DNA from: a virus
Strand: one strand, 5' to 3'
DNA length: 27,704 nt
Virus record (IMG/VR): IMGVR_UViG_3300030419_000980
Span: 1 to 27,704 of that record
The position numbers and the translations under genes are program-made. Below are positions 2,791-17,829 of the stretch, in pieces (position 1 is the stretch's first letter; the number at the start of each line of letters is the position of its first letter). The notes under the pieces were generated by a model that had not been told where the DNA came from, searched no databases, and saw only the letters and a program-made list of their open reading frames with translations.

Positions 2791-4245
2791 TTACATGAGG
2801 TTCTTAACAGCAACGCGACGATAGTAGCGGTTAGAGTTAAGGTTAAGAGCACCAAGACCTTGTGTAGTTCCTTGTGAGAAGGGGTTAGCAACAAGACCAT
2901 AGCGAGTCTTAAATCCAATTTTTGGTTGGAAGGAATTCTCACCGACGGCACGTACCATCTGTAGTGGAACGTAAGGACAGTAGAACAGTCCAGCGTCATA
3001 AGGTGAGGAACCTTTATAACCGACAACGTAGTACTGGTTACCACCTGTTGGTGCAGCGTTAGCACTTGTAAGGTTGGCAGAGTATGGGTCAATGTAGACG
3101 CGATACTTACCTTGGAGCACACCAGCGAAGGTGTTACCAGTGTCGTCAACGTTAAGGTTGGCGTTAAGGGCAGGAGTGTAGTCAAGAACACCAGCCATGG
3201 TTAGTGCAGATGCTACGTCTGCAGAACACATGATGATGTTGCCCTTTCCGCGACGAGTTCTTTGTGCGATTGCGTTAGCGTCGCGCTCGATCTGGAATAG
3301 AAGTCCTTTGAACTTCTCAACTGACCATCTACCGTTGGAGTCAACGTCGAGGTCAAATATACCAGCAGTTGCGGTGTTTTGTACAGCACCTTGCTCAGCA
3401 ACCTTGTAGATAGTTCTGATAACTTCGCGGTTAATTTCAGCGAGGATCTCAGTACTTAGGATGTTAGCAAGTTCTGCTTCTGCATTCAGACCGTGGATTG
3501 CCTTAAGGTCCTGAGCAAGTTCGAGTGAATACTCGGCTTTTAGTGCTCTGGAACGTGCAGTAACCGTGACTTTCTCGATGGAGAATGCCATCTGGTTGAA
3601 TGCCTGGGTACCTGTACCCTGGAGTGCTTCAGCATCACCAGTATACATACCCTGACCAACTCTATATCCTACAGAGGATGCAGTAGCGGTTGGGTTAAGT
3701 ACAGCAGGGTTAGTGCCACCACGACCATCAACACCACCAGTTGTGGTAGTACCGAAACCAGCGTTAGGATCAGTCCACCCAGAGGTGTTACCAAATCCAG
3801 CGTTGGATCCTGAATAACCAGTATCTGCTTCGTCGAAGAGTGCTTCGTTACTGGTCTGGTTGATGTAGCGTGAACGCATTGCGAAGATGAGTCCAGTAGG
3901 TCCACTCATTGGTTGTACACCAGCAAGGTCATAAGCGACCAAGTTTGGCATAGAGCGACGTATTAGACTAATCAATACAGGGTCGAAACCTGCGACAGGA
4001 CCAGCAGCAGTAGCATCAGCACCGAAACCACCTTGGGCTCCAGCAGCGTTTGCTCTGTTAGTAGGTCCGTCTGCTTCCATCAGGTTGATGCCTGATCCGA
4101 AAGCTGCCTCCTCACGGAGGAATTTCTCTTGGTTTTCTAGCAGGACGGCGGTAACCGCTTTACGATGAGGATCTTTGATTTCATCTAGACCTTCATACTC
4201 AAGAAGGGGCTTCCACTTTTCCTGCAACTGTTCTGATTGGAACAT
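2791..4245 (-). CDS. gp23: Major capsid protein gp23
   Basis: This is the subunit of the T4-type icosahedral shell with an HK97 fold. Its 484 residues compare with 521 in T4. The N-terminus MFQSEQLQEKWKPLLEYEGL and later segments FDPVLISLIRRSMPNLVAYD and MSGPTGLIFAMRSRY are hallmarks of marine T4-like gp23. A prohead protease site of consensus L-x-E|A occurs at L55-M-E57|A58, so the mature protein would start ADGPTN. There is no late-promoter motif and only a weak ribosome site (TTAAG) in the 39-base leader, so it appears to be transcribed with gp22 from 5391-5401. A strong terminator follows. Base and codon use differ visibly from neighbours (more GC, C-ending codons such as AAC, CGC, CTC), as expected for the most highly translated gene of the phage. 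No gp24 paralogue is present. Confidence 0.98.
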   Translation of the reverse strand: MFQSEQLQEKWKPLLEYEGLDEIKDPHRKAVTAVLLENQEKFLREEAAFGSGINLMEADGPTNRANAAGAQGGFGADATAAGPVAGFDPVLISLIRRSMPNLVAYDLAGVQPMSGPTGLIFAMRSRYINQTSNEALFDEADTGYSGSNAGFGNTSGWTDPNAGFGTTTTGGVDGRGGTNPAVLNPTATASSVGYRVGQGMYTGDAEALQGTGTQAFNQMAFSIEKVTVTARSRALKAEYSLELAQDLKAIHGLNAEAELANILSTEILAEINREVIRTIYKVAEQGAVQNTATAGIFDLDVDSNGRWSVEKFKGLLFQIERDANAIAQRTRRGKGNIIMCSADVASALTMAGVLDYTPALNANLNVDDTGNTFAGVLQGKYRVYIDPYSANLTSANAAPTGGNQYYVVGYKGSSPYDAGLFYCPYVPLQMVRAVGENSFQPKIGFKTRYGLVANPFSQGTTQGLGALNLNSNRYYRRVAVKNLM

Positions 4246-4284: not shown

Positions 4285-5358
4285 TTACTTAAATGCTGAA
4301 AGTGTCTTCAGATAACCAGCCATACTTCCCTGAGCAACCTCAGGTGATACGTCTACGCCTTCTGAGAGAGTTTCAGATTTAGCACTTGGAGATGCGCCTT
4401 TGGCAGGGAAATAAGATTCCTTTAATGTCTCCAACTTTTCACGATATTCGTCTTCACTTGCAAACTCTACACTTTCGGAAAGTGAGGCGAGCTTCTCTTT
4501 CTGAGTGGCCGCAAGACCTTCAGAAACTTCATCGAGGATACCATCAGCAACCGACTCTGCGAGACGCTTGTTTAAACCGATGTTCTTCTCAATTTGCTCA
4601 TTGAGTTTTGTCTCCATGTCATCAAGTTTTTCTACCATACTCTCAAGGACATCATATTTGTCTTCAGGGATTGTTACATAATGTTCTTCAAAAAGACTCT
4701 TCATTCCACCAAGGAATGATTCGGTAAGTTCTTCCTTAAGTCCGTTCTCTACTGCCAACTGGTTCTCAGTGAACCACTCATCGGCAACGTACTCTAAGTA
4801 AGAATCAACTCTTTCGGCAAGGGCTGCTTTTGCTTCTGCAACTCCTTCCTCAAGTTTTTCAGCATACTCTTCATCTAATGCTACCTTAATTTCGGAAACT
4901 TTAGAATTAAGTGCTGCTTCGAAGATTGTTTTTGCTTTCGCTTTAAACTCTTCGGAAAGATCTTCGCCACCTAGAAGTGCATTAACATCATCTTCGATGT
5001 TATAAGGACTTTCTGTTACTTCCTCTTCAGAAACTACTTCGTCAGTAGTAACTTCGTCTTCAGCAACAATTTCCTGATCTTCTGTGGGTTCCACTTCTTC
5101 TTTGGCAGTTTTACCTTTGCGATTAGTAACTACATCGGAAACTTGCTTTAACGTGCCACCAGGAGTTTTCAGTTTAGCTGAATCATCATCCACCTTGTAG
5201 TTTTCTGGTGTAGGTCCGCCCAAATCCTCCACATTTGGTGGTATGCCGCCAGTGCTAAGCTTCTCCATAGGTTCCCCAGGTTTCGCATTAGCGTTAACAG
5301 CAGTCTTGGATTGCTTCACTTCTTCTTCCATTTTTTGTAATTTTGTGCCACGAGACAT
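4285..5358 (-). CDS. gp22: Prohead scaffold/core protein gp22
   Basis: This is the main scaffold protein of the prohead core, placed between protease gp21 and capsid gp23 as in T4. Its 357 residues exceed T4 gp22 (269). It is highly acidic and almost wholly helical from about residue 120. An Asp/Glu/Val/Thr-rich disordered segment (about 85-120) precedes a long coiled-coil region. Several gp21-type cleavage sites (L/I-x-E before A, G or S) are visible: IFE|A, LTE|S, LAE|S, LSE|S and LSE|G. This agrees with the scaffold being digested to peptides and expelled before DNA packaging. ATG at 5358 has GGAG nine bases upstream and a tandem late-promoter motif at 5391-5401. Confidence 0.93.
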   Translation of the reverse strand: MSRGTKLQKMEEEVKQSKTAVNANAKPGEPMEKLSTGGIPPNVEDLGGPTPENYKVDDDSAKLKTPGGTLKQVSDVVTNRKGKTAKEEVEPTEDQEIVAEDEVTTDEVVSEEEVTESPYNIEDDVNALLGGEDLSEEFKAKAKTIFEAALNSKVSEIKVALDEEYAEKLEEGVAEAKAALAERVDSYLEYVADEWFTENQLAVENGLKEELTESFLGGMKSLFEEHYVTIPEDKYDVLESMVEKLDDMETKLNEQIEKNIGLNKRLAESVADGILDEVSEGLAATQKEKLASLSESVEFASEDEYREKLETLKESYFPAKGASPSAKSETLSEGVDVSPEVAQGSMAGYLKTLSAFK

Positions 5359-5406: not shown

Positions 5407-6057
5407 TTATAAATTTGATAAGAAATCATTAAATAGATTTAATTTATTCTCATCGAGTTTCTTTTGGGTAGTTAAGGTATTAATCTCCTTATAGGTTCTT
5501 TCTACGAACTTCTCACGTAGAACTCCTCCATCCCAAACCCAATCCTTTCCTTCCATGATTCCCTCTACAAAAGCATCGGGAGCTGAAGGATCAGCAACGA
5601 TATCAGCAGCAGTTGCTAATACGAAGTCATCACCAACAACATTAATTCCTTCTTTGGTTGGTCTTAATGAACCAATACCACGAGAAGAAACACCAAGTTT
5701 TACTCCTTCCTCAACAAGAGAAGAAGCAATCTTACCCATTGGGGTATTAAGGATCTTTGCTTTACCTATAAAGTTAGATCCATTTTCTTTTAGGGAAATA
5801 ATTTTATGAGAAACACGATCAAGGTTTACAGTTGGACCTTCAGGGTGACCCAATTCGCCAAGTGCTCTTCCTGATTGAATATGATTCTCGTTGTAACGTC
5901 CAACCTCTTTACGGAGAGTCTCCATAGGATACATTCTACCATTACGGTTTCTAATGTTTCCTTGCAAGAAAACGCCTTCGATATACATTGATTTCCTGCC
6001 GCCCTTATTTTCGACAAGAAATTCTACTGATTCAATTTCTTCTCTAATGAGTTTCAT
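5407..6057 (-). CDS. gp21: Prohead core protease gp21
   Basis: This is the serine protease that matures the prohead by cutting scaffold, capsid and internal proteins after (L/I)-x-E. It has 216 residues from the ATG at 6057. Family motifs in order: MYIEGVFLQGNIRNRNGRMYP (about 24-44), GELGHPEG with candidate catalytic His71, GVSSRGIGSL with Ser124/125, and ADIVADPSAPDAF with Asp152 near the active site. All align with T4 gp21 (GELNHP, GVSSRGLGS, GPSAPDAW). An in-frame ATG at 6129 would add 24 residues but overlap the upstream gene by 68 bases. The start MKLIREEIESV at 6057, four bases after the upstream stop and with AGGGGA nearby, fits better. Neighbours gp22 and gp23 are its substrates. Confidence 0.95.
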   Translation of the reverse strand: MKLIREEIESVEFLVENKGGRKSMYIEGVFLQGNIRNRNGRMYPMETLRKEVGRYNENHIQSGRALGELGHPEGPTVNLDRVSHKIISLKENGSNFIGKAKILNTPMGKIASSLVEEGVKLGVSSRGIGSLRPTKEGINVVGDDFVLATAADIVADPSAPDAFVEGIMEGKDWVWDGGVLREKFVERTYKEINTLTTQKKLDENKLNLFNDFLSNL

Positions 6058-6061
6058 TGCG

Positions 6062-6649
6062 TTAACCGTCCCCTGAGATTTGAACTTGTTGATAATATAA
6101 GGAACCTTTATTAGCGTTCCCTTTTTCATTTACAACACTCACTTTATGTTGTCTGACTATGGACTGTCCCAAATTAGTTGTGTAAGCAGTAGAAATACCA
6201 CTTGTATTAACATTACCAAGAGTTAGTTTAGCCTTAAAGTCACTGTTATATGGTCCAGCATTACCGTTCCATACTGCAGTTACTTCAGCATAACTAATTT
6301 TACTAGTCCAGTTACTATCACATGATCCAGTAGTTAATCCTACACAATCACCTATAACAAATGGCCATTGAGTACCTTCTGGTGCATATACCACACAAGG
6401 ATTAGCAGCAGTGATACTATCGACGATATTCGATCCCTTTGTTTGAGCAAGACTTAATGAAGTATTTGCAGGGATATAAGTATCAGTTTCTCCTACAGTT
6501 TCAGCAACACCAGATTTTACTATTACATGACATCCTGCATCTACTGCAGTAAGTCGTATTACATTTGACTGAACATCAAATGCACTTGAAGTGACTGCTG
6601 TTCCAGATATTGCAAGAGATCCTCCTGCGCCGACGGGTCTAAGTGCCAT
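6062..6649 (-). CDS. Putative virion structural protein, 195 aa, in the gp68 position
   Basis: This beta-rich protein of unknown function begins MALRPVGAGGSLAISGTAV. The sequence is rich in Ser, Thr, Gly, Val and Asn, has four cysteines (40, 85, 102, 110), and lacks the helical acidic character of a core protein. Similar proteins with the MALRPVG start occur at this locus in marine T4-like phages, so it is a lineage gene rather than a newcomer. In T4 the slot between 67 and 21 is held by core protein gp68, to which it shows no visible resemblance. A head-surface or decoration role is a guess. It has a late-promoter motif just upstream (6674-6680) and no clear ribosome site. The gp21 gene begins four bases after its stop. 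Confidence 0.8.
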   Translation of the reverse strand: MALRPVGAGGSLAISGTAVTSSAFDVQSNVIRLTAVDAGCHVIVKSGVAETVGETDTYIPANTSLSLAQTKGSNIVDSITAANPCVVYAPEGTQWPFVIGDCVGLTTGSCDSNWTSKISYAEVTAVWNGNAGPYNSDFKAKLTLGNVNTSGISTAYTTNLGQSIVRQHKVSVVNEKGNANKGSLYYQQVQISGDG

Positions 6650-13329: not shown

Positions 13330-13488
13330 TTACATCATTTCATAGTGTCCAAATCTTCTGTTGTGATCTATAGTTTTTTGTTGTAGTTCTAAAATTTTTT
13401 TGAGGTTTTTTAATTCTTTATCTTTCTTTTCTAGTTCTTCAGTTTTATTTTTGTCCTCCCGCTTGGAGGAGTGGTTCTCCTGGGTCAT
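13330..13488 (-). CDS. Small charged coiled-coil protein, 52 aa
   Basis: This short frame starts MTQENHSSKREDKNKTEELE at ATG 13488 and ends RRFGHYEMM before TAA, two bases ahead of the gp17 start. It overlaps the end of the 130-aa gene by 44 bases. It is Lys/Glu-rich with a Leu heptad pattern (ELEKKDKELKNLKKILELQQ), suggesting a short coiled coil. The frame can be extended upstream only with a TTG start inside the neighbouring gene, which I reject. No Shine-Dalgarno precedes the ATG, so it may depend on coupling to the overlapping gene. Function unknown. It could be a random open frame in AT-rich DNA, but its tight junction with gp17 argues for a real gene. Confidence 0.6.
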   Translation of the reverse strand: MTQENHSSKREDKNKTEELEKKDKELKNLKKILELQQKTIDHNRRFGHYEMM

Positions 13489-13837
13489 AGTTAGAAACTT
13501 GGTAGTTCCAGAGTTTAGCACCAGGATACACTTTTCTCACTTGATCCTGGACTTCTCTGCGTGATGGGACTTTGACGGATGGAAAAAACATTTTTATCAT
13601 GTAGTTAGTTCCTCGCCAAGCCAGATAACAGTCTATTATATTGCCTGTCTTGTTGTAATTTGGAAGACGTGTTGCTTCTTCCAAAGGGTCATCATATTTT
13701 ATATTTGTTGTTGTAGGTTGTAAAGGTTCTGGTTTAATTATATCAAAAGACTCAAAATCGCGGAAGACGACTCCTTCGCCGTAATCTTCCACTTTGATAC
13801 CACAATTCTCTAAAGCAGCAACTTGAGCTGGTCCCAT
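13445..13837 (-). CDS. Hypothetical protein, 130 aa, upstream of gp17
   Basis: I do not recognise a function. The protein starts MGPAQVAALENCGIKVEDYG and ends with a Gly/Gln tail. It has a mixed alpha/beta character, and its second half (YLAWRGTNYMIKMFFPSVKVPSRREVQDQV) is basic and conserved-looking, with no membrane segment. It lies two genes before the large terminase and shares a transcription unit with it, from the late motif at 13866-13872, so a late virion or packaging role is likely by position only. The ATG at 13837 has only weak ribosome-site character. Its final 44 bases are shared with the 52-aa frame. Confidence 0.82.
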   Translation of the reverse strand: MGPAQVAALENCGIKVEDYGEGVVFRDFESFDIIKPEPLQPTTTNIKYDDPLEEATRLPNYNKTGNIIDCYLAWRGTNYMIKMFFPSVKVPSRREVQDQVRKVYPGAKLWNYQVSNYDPGEPLLQAGGQK

Positions 13838-14618: not shown

Positions 14619-14888
14619 TTATTCTCCACCACCATTGCCACCACCGCCGTTGCCGTTCCCACCATTACCATTGCCAGAATGGCCATTGCCATTTCCGTTA
14701 CCGTTATTGGACCCATTACCGTTGCCATTTTTCTTTTTCTCCTCATAGTCACGAGCTAGATACCCACTTCGCATAACATGCCAACCTTTGGGAATCTTTT
14801 TACATTTCTTGTCAGTATAGCACCAATACTGTCCTTCTGGACACCTTTTCTTTGCCGCCTCTTCAATAAATTGATTAATGTTTTTCAT
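14619..14888 (-). CDS. Putative internal head protein with capsid-targeting N-terminus and Gly-Asn tail, 89 aa
   Basis: The first eleven residues, MKNINQFIEEA, match the pattern of the T4 internal protein targeting sequence (MKTYQEFIxEA). They contain a gp21-type site I-E-E10|A11, so the mature protein would begin AAKKRCPEG. The body is small and basic with three cysteines (16, 23, 29) in CPEGQYWCYTDKKCKKIPKG, perhaps a disulfide or metal knuckle. Residues 54-89 are almost only Gly and Asn (NGNGNG type). Similar Gly-Asn-tailed proteins are known as unnamed proteins in marine T4-like phages. By analogy with T4 IPI-III it may be packed in the head and injected with DNA; this is inference. The ATG overlaps the upstream TGA (ATGA). 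Confidence 0.82.
   Translation of the reverse strand: MKNINQFIEEAAKKRCPEGQYWCYTDKKCKKIPKGWHVMRSGYLARDYEEKKKNGNGNGSNNGNGNGNGHSGNGNGGNGNGGGGNGGGE
14622..14729 (-). repeat. Gly-Asn coding repeat (GGN-AAY-type codons)
   Basis: This degenerate 6-base repeat encodes alternating Gly and Asn, then runs of Gly, at the end of the 89-aa gene. Codon choice varies (ggt, gga, ggc), so it is kept at protein level and is not a fresh slippage product. Confidence 0.8.
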
Positions 14889-15187
14889 CTAACTCCCATA
14901 AATTGCTGATAAGTCCTCTTCATTTTATTTACCACTTTCTGAGCTTCCAGTTCTACAAATTCTTTTGATGCTGCTACCTGAGCATCAACACCTGCCATCG
15001 ATAATTTCTCAACAGGCCATACATTAGAGAATCTCCATTTTGCTAATCCAGATTGTCCTGGAGTTTGATAATCTTGAGAAAGTAATTCATCATCATAAGG
15101 AAAAAGTAATGGATCATAGTTAGCAATACTCGCACCAGTAGAATTGGTCGGTGTTGCTTCATTTATATAATCTTTGAACTTTTTCAT
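14885..15187 (-). CDS. Putative internal head protein with capsid-targeting N-terminus, 100 aa
   Basis: The start MKKFKDYINEATPTN has the same layout as the neighbouring 89-aa protein and T4 internal proteins: Met-Lys, an aromatic/hydrophobic-charged decapeptide, then I-N-E10|A11, a gp21 consensus site. After the predicted cut, residues 12-45 are Pro/Ser/Asp-rich and probably extended (YDPLLFPYDDELLSQDYQTP). Residues 60-95 are helical and end basic (KKMKRTYQQF-like, VVNKMKRTYQQFMGVR). I recognise no function. It overlaps the upstream fibre gene stop as TAATG and the downstream gene as ATGA, so the three are likely made together. Targeting to the prohead core is inferred from the decapeptide only. 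Confidence 0.82.
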   Translation of the reverse strand: MKKFKDYINEATPTNSTGASIANYDPLLFPYDDELLSQDYQTPGQSGLAKWRFSNVWPVEKLSMAGVDAQVAASKEFVELEAQKVVNKMKRTYQQFMGVR

Positions 15188-17829
15188 TATACAGTTAATG
15201 CCGTTGCTAAGACTGTAACCGTTGCAGATGATGCACTACCCATATTTACATAAACCTTAAGGTTTGCTCCGTCAATACCAGTAGTAAATGTTCCTAACAT
15301 AGATCCAGTTGCAACTGCAGATTCTTCTAAAATACTTGCAGTTGTACCATCATGTATAACCAGATATCGACCTACTTGATATGCAGAACCTTGAGTAATC
15401 TGAATAATAATAGATGCAGAACGATAATCTGCATGAGCAACAGAGTATACTGATGTTGCACTTGTAGATGAAACAGCAGTATCTTCTTCAGATGCTCCTC
15501 CAGGAACATCAGTTAATCCAGAACCATCTCCAACAAAATTCGTTGCAGTTACAATTCCAGCAGTTATATTACCATTAGCATATATGGTAGCAGCAGTTCC
15601 AACTGTAAATCCTCCTGCTGTTACATTTCCTGTAGATGGATTATATGTAAGTCCAGTATCAGATTCTGCTCCTTGAGATCCTGTTGCGCCATCAACAAAT
15701 ATTGGATAGACAGTTTCATCTGTAGAATTATTAGCAGTGACTGTGAAAGTACCAGCATTACCAGATACATCACCTGTTACGTCACCTGTTACATCTCCAG
15801 TTAAATCACCTACAAATCCACCGTTAGAAGTTACAATTCCTGCAGCTGCAATATTACCATTAGTGAATACAGTAGCACCTGTGCTAACAGAGAATTTAGT
15901 ACCATCATAAGTTAATGTTGATTCTCCGTTTAATGTATTTGCACTATCCGATCCTGTTATAATTCTATCATCTGCATTAGTGTTTATTGTTACTCCAGAT
16001 GGAAGACCCGTTAATCCAGAACCATCTCCAATATAACTTGATGCAGTTACTACTCCAGAGAATGATGCATTACCGTTAGAATATATCGTTGCAGCAGAAC
16101 CTACCCGAAGACCATCAGTAAGAGTTGCAATACCAGATGCTATGTTTAAACCAAGAGTGGTAATCTGTATTCCCTTGGTTGCAGTAACAATACCAGTAGA
16201 ATAGATATCAGTTACCGTATCATAATTAAGTGATGATGCTGTAAAGATACCAGTAAAATAACCATTAGTTGCAGTAATGGTTCCAACAGTCATCCCTCCA
16301 GTGGATGTATTGCCATTATCTAATACATCATCTAAAGTTAATATAGGAGATAATGCAGTACTTGCAATACCCACCCAATCAGATCCATCATAAATTAAAA
16401 GTTTATTTTCTCCTGTAGATTCATCAAAGCTGACATCCGCCATATCTTTGAGGAAACCAGCACCACCACCACCGATGGTATATAATTGCTGTTCAACTCT
16501 ATTAACGAATAATCTATAATGCCTTGATAAATCCTCTAATGTAGCATATGTTTGATCAGTTGCCGTAAGAGGATCATTTCCCTGTTTTTGACTAGGATCA
16601 GGAGTTATAGGTCTTCCAGGATCAGTATCACTTGGATACTTTGAAACCTCTTCAGTTAAGGTTTCCTGAGTTCCTTTTAATTCCTCAACAATTCTATAAA
16701 GTTCAGCAATATTAGTTCCTTTATCTTCAACCTTTTCAGTTAACTTAGAGATATCCTCTTTTAAATCATCAATATTCTCATCATAATATTTTACTTCAGG
16801 AAGTTCTGCAATCTCTTTTTGTAATTGCTCAAAATATACTCTAAGAGATGTATTAACAGTCTGCTGTGCTTCTACATTCTTATTATTAAATTCATCAATT
16901 TGCTCTTTAACATTCTTCTTTAATACCTGATATTCACCAAGTATTTGCTTCTTTAATTTACGATCATCATCTTTAAACTCTTTATGATGATCCCAAACCT
17001 TTAAAGCTGATTCTCTTAATTCCTCATAGATCTTATCAGAAGTTTTCTTTATTTGTTCCTTTAATTCATCCTTTGCATCATCTAAATTTTCCTGTACATT
17101 CTTAACATCTACTCCTCTATCAAAATCTTTTGTTTCTAATGATTCTGTGAGTTCTTTTACCTCAAAAGTAATCTTATCCCTAACTGTCTGTATTTGATCT
17201 TTTACCTTAACAAAATCATCATCAATTATACTAAATGTCCTTCCGACCCATGAAAGATCAGGAAGGCTATCTTCATTAACCCATTCTGGTAAATTTGGAA
17301 TCTCAGATCGAACTTTATCAATCTGTTCACAAATTGCTTCTATTTCTAGATCATATAATTTCTGTTCAGGAATCTCAGGAATAGATTCCTTCAGAATCTC
17401 AATCCTATCATCAAGATCAGAAATTTCCTGATCATATACCTTTGCTTCTGGTATATCAGCAATCTCTTGTTTTAAAGATTCAATCCGAGCAGATAATTCT
17501 TCTACTTCATTATCATAGATTCTCTCTTCGGGAATGCTTCTTTTAACTTCCCAAATATGCTCAGATAACTCTTTTAATTCTTTGTCGTAATACTTAATCT
17601 CAGGAATGTTAGGTATATCCTTTCTAACATCACTGATAAGACGTAATATCTCTCCAAGACTTTCTACAGATATTTTGTCATCTATTGCTTCTTCTTCAAT
17701 ATCTATTTCTTCTATAATCTCTTCTACTTCGTCCTTTTCTTTTTCAATGAATTCTTCAACAGAGGGTAACTCTGATTCTACTATAAGATCTTCTATTGAA
17801 GGTAAATTTTCAAGATTGTCTTCAGACAT
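15187..17829 (-). CDS. Coiled-coil plus beta-fibre structural protein, 880 aa (tail fibre/whisker-like)
   Basis: This is a modular fibrous virion protein. Residues 1-60 are very acidic. Residues 75-185 hold four copies of a motif, (I)PE-x-(K/R)-x-YD-x-E-(I/V), with YD at 81-82, 105-106, 132-133 and 159-160; a fifth copy is at 349-350. The rest of 200-400 is continuous coiled coil. After a Pro/Gly hinge (400-420, 453-457), residues 458-880 are Gly/Thr/Ser/Asn-rich beta sequence. A duplicated block (VGxAATIYxNGN ... GDGSGLT) at 577-610 and 743-777 and a short GDVTGDVTGDVSG run (678-690) are typical of marine phage fibre shafts. The last 100 residues look like a globular tip. It probably trimerises. 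It lies between gp16 and gp17 rather than in the T4 fibritin position. Start ATG 17829 with weak ribosome site; CTAAATA at 17878-17884. Confidence 0.85.
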   Translation of the reverse strand: MSEDNLENLPSIEDLIVESELPSVEEFIEKEKDEVEEIIEEIDIEEEAIDDKISVESLGEILRLISDVRKDIPNIPEIKYYDKELKELSEHIWEVKRSIPEERIYDNEVEELSARIESLKQEIADIPEAKVYDQEISDLDDRIEILKESIPEIPEQKLYDLEIEAICEQIDKVRSEIPNLPEWVNEDSLPDLSWVGRTFSIIDDDFVKVKDQIQTVRDKITFEVKELTESLETKDFDRGVDVKNVQENLDDAKDELKEQIKKTSDKIYEELRESALKVWDHHKEFKDDDRKLKKQILGEYQVLKKNVKEQIDEFNNKNVEAQQTVNTSLRVYFEQLQKEIAELPEVKYYDENIDDLKEDISKLTEKVEDKGTNIAELYRIVEELKGTQETLTEEVSKYPSDTDPGRPITPDPSQKQGNDPLTATDQTYATLEDLSRHYRLFVNRVEQQLYTIGGGGAGFLKDMADVSFDESTGENKLLIYDGSDWVGIASTALSPILTLDDVLDNGNTSTGGMTVGTITATNGYFTGIFTASSLNYDTVTDIYSTGIVTATKGIQITTLGLNIASGIATLTDGLRVGSAATIYSNGNASFSGVVTASSYIGDGSGLTGLPSGVTINTNADDRIITGSDSANTLNGESTLTYDGTKFSVSTGATVFTNGNIAAAGIVTSNGGFVGDLTGDVTGDVTGDVSGNAGTFTVTANNSTDETVYPIFVDGATGSQGAESDTGLTYNPSTGNVTAGGFTVGTAATIYANGNITAGIVTATNFVGDGSGLTDVPGGASEEDTAVSSTSATSVYSVAHADYRSASIIIQITQGSAYQVGRYLVIHDGTTASILEESAVATGSMLGTFTTGIDGANLKVYVNMGSASSATVTVLATALTV
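15499..16101 (-). repeat. Duplicated fibre module VGxAATIYxNGN...GDGSGLT (two copies)
   Basis: One copy is encoded at 16000-16101 and the other at 15499-15603. The two protein blocks of about 34 residues align almost end to end (VGSAATIYSNGN and VGTAATIYANGN, then GDGSGLTGLP and GDGSGLTDVP), while the DNA has drifted. Confidence 0.8.
15760..15804 (-). repeat. Short tandem repeat coding GDVTGDVTGDVSG
   Basis: Three to four 12-base units encode (D/L)TGDV in the fibre shaft. The plus strand shows repeated 'cacctgttac' type units with point differences. Confidence 0.75.
17272..17616 (-). repeat. Coiled-coil repeat block (PE-x-x-x-YD-x-E units)
   Basis: This encodes residues 72-186 of the 880-aa protein. 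Four diverged copies of 24-27 residues carry the shared signature I-P-E-x-K-x-Y-D-x-E-I. A lone fifth copy lies about 190 residues further on. Confidence 0.75.

What the first reader, a model, noticed from the sequence alone, without database searches (positions are those of the whole stretch)
14619..15187. Two adjacent small proteins carry a T4 internal-protein-like capsid-targeting decapeptide with a gp21 cleavage site
MKKFKDYINE|A and MKNINQFIEE|A share one layout: Met-Lys, eight residues with aromatic/charged alternation, then I-x-E|A exactly after residue 10. T4 IPI and IPIII begin MKTYQEFIxE|A and are cut by gp21 at the same place. The prohead protease gp21 is encoded in this window. The sequences downstream of the cut are unrelated to each other: one is Cys-containing, basic and Gly-Asn-tailed, the other Pro/Asp-rich then helical. 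This is what is expected of different cargo proteins carrying one address tag. If right, these are packaged, injected early effectors, perhaps host-directed or anti-defence like T4 IPI.
Basis: partly seen in the sequence, partly recalled or inferred. Interest (0 to 1): 0.75.

Follow-up and report, generated by a model that had tools for sequence, protein, structure and literature searches.

The report
Capsid-address tags on marine phage proteins
Two neighbouring small genes of a marine T4-like phage begin with the ten-residue "ship me into the head, then cut me off" tag known from phage T4 internal proteins, and the same tag turns out to be attached to dozens of unrelated proteins in environmental phages, at least one of which is known to be in the virus particle.

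Summary
Both overlapping ORFs (minus strand) begin with a T4-type capsid-targeting sequence (CTS) ending I-x-E|A at residue 10; the window has 2 pattern matches against 0.01 expected. Among 24 aligned ORF A relatives, M1, K2, F7 and E10 are invariant and F4, I8, A11 nearly so, including the positions that mutagenesis of T4 IPIII assigned to targeting (4, 7) and processing (8, 10) (PMC9026906). In T4 the pattern finds only ipII and ipIII. In IMG/VR, 121 of 122 strict matches start an ORF, against 5 of 32 for a permuted control, and the mature parts fall into 35 unrelated clusters. One tagged protein, the cyanophage NMNAT/cytidylyltransferase, was found in virions by mass spectrometry. So prohead targeting and gp21 cutting is the best explanation. 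"Injected anti-defence effector" is untested. ORF B looks more structural: after the cut it carries a near copy of the processed N-terminal arm of major capsid protein gp23, and some relatives lack a leader. ORF A is a basic three-Cys module, free-standing here and part of multi-module proteins elsewhere; one such protein is listed as a virion protein. Cleavage is inferred, not shown.

The parts
15158..15187 (-). ORF B leader: capsid-targeting-type decapeptide MKKFKDYINE; predicted gp21 cut after E10
   Evidence: sequence; pattern match; helix 4-10 in a low-confidence model; family leaders all end L/I/V-x-E directly before the conserved arm
14885..15157 (-). ORF B mature part (ATPTNSTG...GVR, 90 aa): gp23-arm-like stretch, conserved extended core QDYQTPGQSG..WRFSNVxPV, C-terminal helix
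14859..14888 (-). ORF A leader: capsid-targeting-type decapeptide MKNINQFIEE; predicted gp21 cut after E10
   Evidence: sequence; pattern match; M1 K2 F7 E10 invariant, F4 I8 A11 nearly invariant in 24 aligned sequences. The window protein has I, not F, at position 4
14619..14858 (-). ORF A mature part: basic three-Cys module (CPEGQYWCYTDKKCKKIPKG) and Gly/Asn-rich tail
5407..6129 (-). gp21-type prohead protease (Peptidase_S77), the presumed cutter
   Evidence: PF03420 E=4.1e-34; phrog_207 head maturation protease
3973..4074 (-). gp23 processed N-terminal arm (after LME|, ADGPTN...GPVAGFDPVL), which ORF B resembles
   Evidence: alignment by motif; HMM of gp23 arms finds ORF B
2791..4245 (-). 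gp23 major capsid protein precursor
   Evidence: PF07068 E=1e-148
4285..5358 (-). gp22-type scaffold protein, the core that the tag is expected to bind (inference from T4)
   Evidence: PF25623 E=9.6e-82
13445..13837 (-). small protein with a likely internal gp21 site (DPLEE|ATRLPNYNKTGN); its C-terminal half is a module found fused in cyanophage multi-module proteins
15187..17829 (-). upstream 880-aa tail-fibre-like gene, joined to ORF B by a TAATG overlap: context showing co-expression with structural genes

Best explanation
Both ORFs encode precursors of proteins of the phage head interior. The first ten residues form a short helix whose F/Y/I4 and F/Y7 are read by the prohead core (T4: gp22-containing core), so the protein is built into the prohead; gp21 then cuts at I8-x-E10|A11 and releases the mature protein into the head before DNA packaging. 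ORF A delivers a small basic three-Cys module with a Gly/Asn tail that probably lies with the DNA and may leave with it. ORF B delivers a protein whose new N-terminus copies the processed gp23 arm; I think it most likely binds the inner face of the gp23 shell (or the portal region) as an extended strap, rather than acting in the host. Shown: presence, conservation and reuse of the tag, a cut-like boundary in every leadered ORF B relative, and the gp23-arm resemblance. Inferred: targeting, cutting, location, injection, function.
For: Conserved positions in ORF A relatives (1, 2, 4, 7, 8, 10, 11) include those with tested roles in T4 IPIII (4, 7 targeting; 8, 10 processing; PMC9026906). The pattern has no reversed-pattern match in 13 whole phage records and gives exactly ipII and ipIII in T4. 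Positions left free by the pattern still lean to T4-like residues (S/T at 3 in 87/121, Q/E at 6 in 74/121). The only match in S-SM1 is the T4-GC190 cytidylyltransferase, detected in its virion (PMC3037559); the tagged S-SCSM1 NMNAT SSCSM1_91 is a mass-spectrometry-detected virion protein (PMC9602691). All 22 leadered ORF B relatives have L/I/V-x-E directly before the arm although the leader is 10, 12 or 15 residues long or internal, and 6 relatives start at the arm itself. S-SCSM1_29, which contains the ORF A module, is labelled a virion protein. The ORF A gene lies near gp23 or a gp3-type gene in 56 of 82 loci.
Against: No direct evidence of packaging or cleavage for these two proteins. Window ORF A has I at position 4 where nearly all relatives have F. 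Leaderless ORF B relatives (6 of 28) show that the tag is not always needed. The ORF A relatives were found with a query that includes the leader, so their leader conservation is partly ascertained. Tagged SSCSM1_30 is not labelled a virion protein. Unselected gp21-bearing IMG/VR fragments held only 2 matches in 36 records, so the link to gp21 is consistent but weak statistically; several tagged contigs are fragments without gp21 or gp23. Structure models are low confidence (pLDDT 61 and 71).
Confidence: 0.78

Rival explanations
1. The leaders are real targeting tags and both mature proteins are injected early effectors that act on the host, for example on restriction, as T4 IP1-3 do.
For: Ip1, Ip2 and Ip3 all inhibit type IV restriction and share only the leader (PMC12373910). 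Tagged proteins elsewhere include a SAM-lyase-family protein, a GNAT acetyltransferase and an AAA/zeta-toxin-like kinase fused to a nucleotidyltransferase, all plausible host-acting proteins. Mature ORF A is small and basic like the T4 IPs.
Against: No defence or effector homology for ORF A or B. ORF A-type modules are widespread and well conserved, unlike the variable T-even IPs. ORF B resembles a capsid arm and is acidic.
Confidence: 0.2
2. ORF B is a capsid or portal structural component; its leader is only a removable propeptide like that of gp23, and the tag is not the main reason it enters the head.
For: Post-cut ATPTNSTGASIANYDPLL matches gp23 arms such as AAPTNSTGASIANFDPVL (L043); an HMM of gp23 arms finds ORF B relatives at E 6e-7 to 0.03 among 23,930 ORFs. 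Six relatives start at the arm with no leader and nine have a different 15-residue leader.
Against: Window ORF B and about a third of its relatives have the full CTS form. No ORF B relative is recorded as a virion protein in the records I saw.
Confidence: 0.4
3. The shared decapeptide is coincidence or a general translation-start bias (MK plus a hydrophobic helix).
For: MK starts are common in AT-rich phage genes (general knowledge).
Against: Window expectation 0.01 for the pattern; a permuted pattern that keeps ATGAAR is rare and mostly not at gene starts; leaders vary in codons but hardly in residues 2, 7, 8, 10, 11.
Confidence: 0.02
4. The leader is an ordinary export or membrane signal, or a domain-interaction helix unrelated to the head.
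For: A short helix is predicted at residues 4-10 or 4-12 in both models.
Against: No long hydrophobic stretch; tagged NMNAT is in virions; T4 ipII/ipIII are the only T4 genes found with the same pattern.
Confidence: 0.03

Closest known systems
T4 internal proteins IPII/IPIII with capsid-targeting sequence MKTYQEFIAE|A
   Same: Leader length 10, K2, aromatic/hydrophobic at 4 and 7, I8-x-E10|A11; gp21 encoded by the phage; unrelated mature parts behind one leader
   Different: Mature ORF A and B have no detected relation to T4 IPs; ORF A is a Cys module with a Gly/Asn tail; ORF B carries a gp23-like arm; host group is marine (Kyanoviridae-type), not enteric
Cyanophage T4-GC190 cytidylyltransferase/NMNAT
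   Same: Same type of leader (MKSFLQFLKE|A in S-SCSM1, MKKFSAFLNE|A in S-SM1); T4-like cyanophage
   Different: A ~400-aa enzyme detected in virions; the packaging tag was not mentioned in the passages of the virion papers I read
gp23 major capsid protein N-terminal arm
   Same: ORF B after the cut has the PTNSTGASIAN(F/Y)DPxL stretch, also directly after a L/I-x-E-type site
   Different: ORF B lacks the capsid fold; the rest of it is an extended conserved core and one helix
Cyanophage multi-module basic proteins (S-SM2 SSM2_109, S-SSM7 SSSM7_236, S-SCSM1_29, P-TIM68 AIR93449)
   Same: Contain the ORF A Cys module; modules are separated by E|(A/G/S) boundaries
   Different: There the module is internal to a 370-990 aa protein (at the start of the S-SCSM1 one); in the window it is a separate gene with its own leader

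Membership tests
T4-type CTS-directed internal head proteins | N-terminal 10-19 residue propeptide with the residues needed for targeting (4, 7) and processing (8, 10) | tested here: met
   ORF A relatives conserve 4, 7, 8, 10; ORF B of the window has F4, Y7, I8, E10. Window ORF A has I4 instead of F/Y, a conservative departure
T4-type CTS-directed internal head proteins | gp21-type protease and gp22-type core in the same phage | tested here: met
   PF03420 4.1e-34 and PF25623 9.6e-82 in the window
T4-type CTS-directed internal head proteins | Same leader on mutually unrelated mature proteins | tested here: met
   No alignment between mature A and B; 35 clusters in IMG/VR
T4-type CTS-directed internal head proteins | Protein present inside the virion | not testable with these tools
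   Not for A or B. Indirect: tagged NMNAT and a protein containing the ORF A module are listed as virion proteins
T4-type CTS-directed internal head proteins | Cleavage by gp21 after E10 | not testable with these tools
   Only sequence agreement with L/I-x-E (PMC9026906)
T4-type CTS-directed internal head proteins | Injection into the host with the DNA | not testable with these tools
   none
Anti-restriction IP effectors (Ip1-3) | Sequence or fold relation to a known GmrSD inhibitor | tested here: inconclusive
   No Pfam match for either protein; Foldseek with the low-confidence ORF A model gave nothing at E<=0.001; no direct comparison with Ip1-3 was run
gp23 capsid protein family | Capsid (HK97-type) fold domain | tested here: not met
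   ORF B has only the arm; no PF07068 match and a model with one long helix

The most novel reading that the evidence does not exclude
Marine T4-like phages use a portable address-and-cut code: the decapeptide directs dozens of unrelated proteins (NAD-related nucleotidyltransferase, SAM-lyase-family, acetyltransferase, kinase, lytic transglycosylase, basic Cys modules) into the head; the same kind of site serves as linker between modules of multi-module head proteins; and a small-protein family, ORF B, pairs it with a copy of the capsid protein's own processed arm to dock on the shell. Reading the tag would list a large uncharted set of virion-delivered proteins of ocean phages.
Probability: 0.5. 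Interest if true: 0.8.

Novelty: new variant of a known kind. Interest (0 to 1): 0.62.

Why it matters
The capsid-targeting sequence was worked out in T4 and used to find internal protein genes in T-even phages. If it works in marine T4-like phages, packaged proteins of some of the commonest viruses in the ocean can be read from their first eleven residues, and published puzzles such as NMNAT in cyanophage virions get a simple explanation. The gp23-arm copy in ORF B suggests a second, testable way for a small protein to bind the capsid.

Tried and rejected
Chance: rejected by shuffles, reversed and permuted patterns. Function from families: Pfam gave nothing for A or B, PHROGs only families of unknown function for A and none for B. 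Foldseek of the ORF A model: no significant match. Link of the tag with gp21 across IMG/VR: all 7 of 26 records with gp21 also carry the tag, but 6 of them were chosen by the tag, and unselected gp21 fragments gave only 2 of 36; consistent, not proof. Same-length arms of ORF B and gp23 within one phage: not so in the window (gp23 long, ORF B short). Virion evidence for ORF B itself: none found. S-CREM2, which has a published virion list with a SAM hydrolase, was only looked up by name (the sampled list did not show it), so its proteins were not checked for tags.

Full report
Observation. ORF B starts inside the stop of an 880-aa tail-fibre-like gene (TAATG), ORF A inside the stop of ORF B (ATGA), so they are probably read together with structural genes. 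The window is a T4-like cyanophage-type structural region with gp21 (PF03420), gp22 (PF25623) and gp23 (PF07068). The degenerate DNA pattern for the leader matches twice in the window, exactly at these two starts, against 0.01 expected from shuffles.

Is it the T4 tag? A review of T4 head assembly states that ten residues of IPIII suffice for packaging, that residues 4 and 7 carry targeting and residues 8 and 10 processing, and that gp21 cuts after L/I-x-E (PMC9026906). In 24 aligned ORF A-type proteins M1, K2, F7, E10 are invariant and F4, I8, A11 nearly so, with synonymous codon variation at several of them. Those relatives were found partly through the leader, so this alone is not proof. 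The independent test is the pattern scan. Over 13 whole phage records it gave 14 matches with no reversed-pattern match, and in T4 only ipII and ipIII. Over IMG/VR it reached the 120-stretch limit, against 26 (reversed) and 32 (permuted order, ATGAAR kept). Of 122 matches, 121 begin an ORF; of 32 permuted matches, 5 do. The mature parts form 35 clusters with no BLASTP link. Positions that the pattern left open still lean to T4-like residues.

Is any tagged protein in a virion? Yes, by published mass spectrometry. The single match in S-SM1 is SSM1_190, T4-GC190, which Sullivan et al. detected in the S-SM1 virion (PMC3037559). The tagged S-SCSM1 NMNAT SSCSM1_91 is a detected virion protein (PMC9602691); [quoted passage not shown] Among the papers that the library returned for "capsid targeting sequence" I found none that ties the tag to cyanophages (titles, abstracts and selected passages only). 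Leader-based discovery of ip genes in T-even phages is known (PMC12373910).

ORF B. Of 28 distinct relatives (window included), 22 have L/I/V-x-E directly before the arm, although the leader is the MK type of 10 residues, a 12-residue variant, a 15-residue type (MDIxxIIxxIRNLxE), or an internal stretch of a longer protein; 6 have no leader and start at the arm. That is what a processing boundary should look like. The arm itself, ATPTNSTGASIANYDPLL in the window, is nearly the processed arm of gp23 in related contigs (AAPTNSTGASIANFDPVL in L043). An HMM of gp23 arms finds ORF B relatives at 6e-7 to 0.03, the window protein at 7e-4; the other non-gp23 hits listed belong to a third small basic family with the same arm. 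The model is a leader helix, a disordered middle with very conserved residues, and a C-terminal helix (pLDDT 61). I read it as a strap that binds the shell; this is inference.

ORF A. It is a basic three-Cys module with four short strands in a pLDDT 71 model. In other loci it follows the ORF B core in one protein, joined by FMGE|A or FMDE|A, which has the tag's own spacing F-x-x-F-[MI]-x-E|A. In S-SM2, S-SSM7, P-TIM68 and S-SCSM1 it is one of several modules in larger basic proteins, and module boundaries keep E|(A/G/S); the S-SCSM1 protein is labelled a virion protein. So the tag-like site appears to double as a linker, and split genes carry their own copy.

Judgement. Targeting and cutting of both proteins is the best reading (0.78), by inference. 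What they do afterwards is open: ORF B more likely structural, ORF A unknown, effector roles possible but without evidence here. I rate it a new variant of a known kind: the tag is T4's, while the marine hosts, the breadth of cargo, the use as inter-module linker and the capsid-arm copy are what I did not find described.

Noticed in passing
window 13445-13837 (-): A further small protein with a likely internal gp21 site (LEE|ATRLPNYNKTGN); its C-terminal half is a module seen in cyanophage multi-module proteins behind E|A or E|S.
   Followed up: partly
L154, L162, L166, L174, L192, L213, L215, L218, L229, L249, L251, L253, L025, L027, L033: A third family of small basic proteins with the gp23-arm-like motif GFxGxAxxxGPxAG(F/Y)D, several behind a leader of the type MDKxxxxRIIxxIREE; many of these contigs also carry the tagged nucleotidyltransferase.
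   Followed up: partly
MH319754.1 position 32221 (L134): A capsid-tag leader (MKTFKEFLEE|S) on a protein matching the S-adenosylmethionine lyase family PF23780 (5.7e-19), a possible packaged anti-restriction protein.
   Followed up: no
L148 11227-12507 (-): Tagged protein with a cytidylyltransferase-like domain fused to an AAA/zeta-toxin-like kinase domain.
   Followed up: no
G008 (record of L185), 27-34 kb and 77-84 kb: Seven tag matches in one 87.6-kb virus record, four of them within 7 kb; gp21, gp23 and T4-type portal were not found in the record, which may be a fragment.
   Followed up: no
L012, L024, L027, L029, L032, L036: ORF B relatives lie about 1-6 kb downstream of a tagged nucleotidyltransferase gene, a possible head-cargo neighbourhood.
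   Followed up: partly
L161 3736-4529 (+): Two tagged ORFs in tandem, the second a GNAT acetyltransferase (PF13508, 1.2e-7).
   Followed up: no
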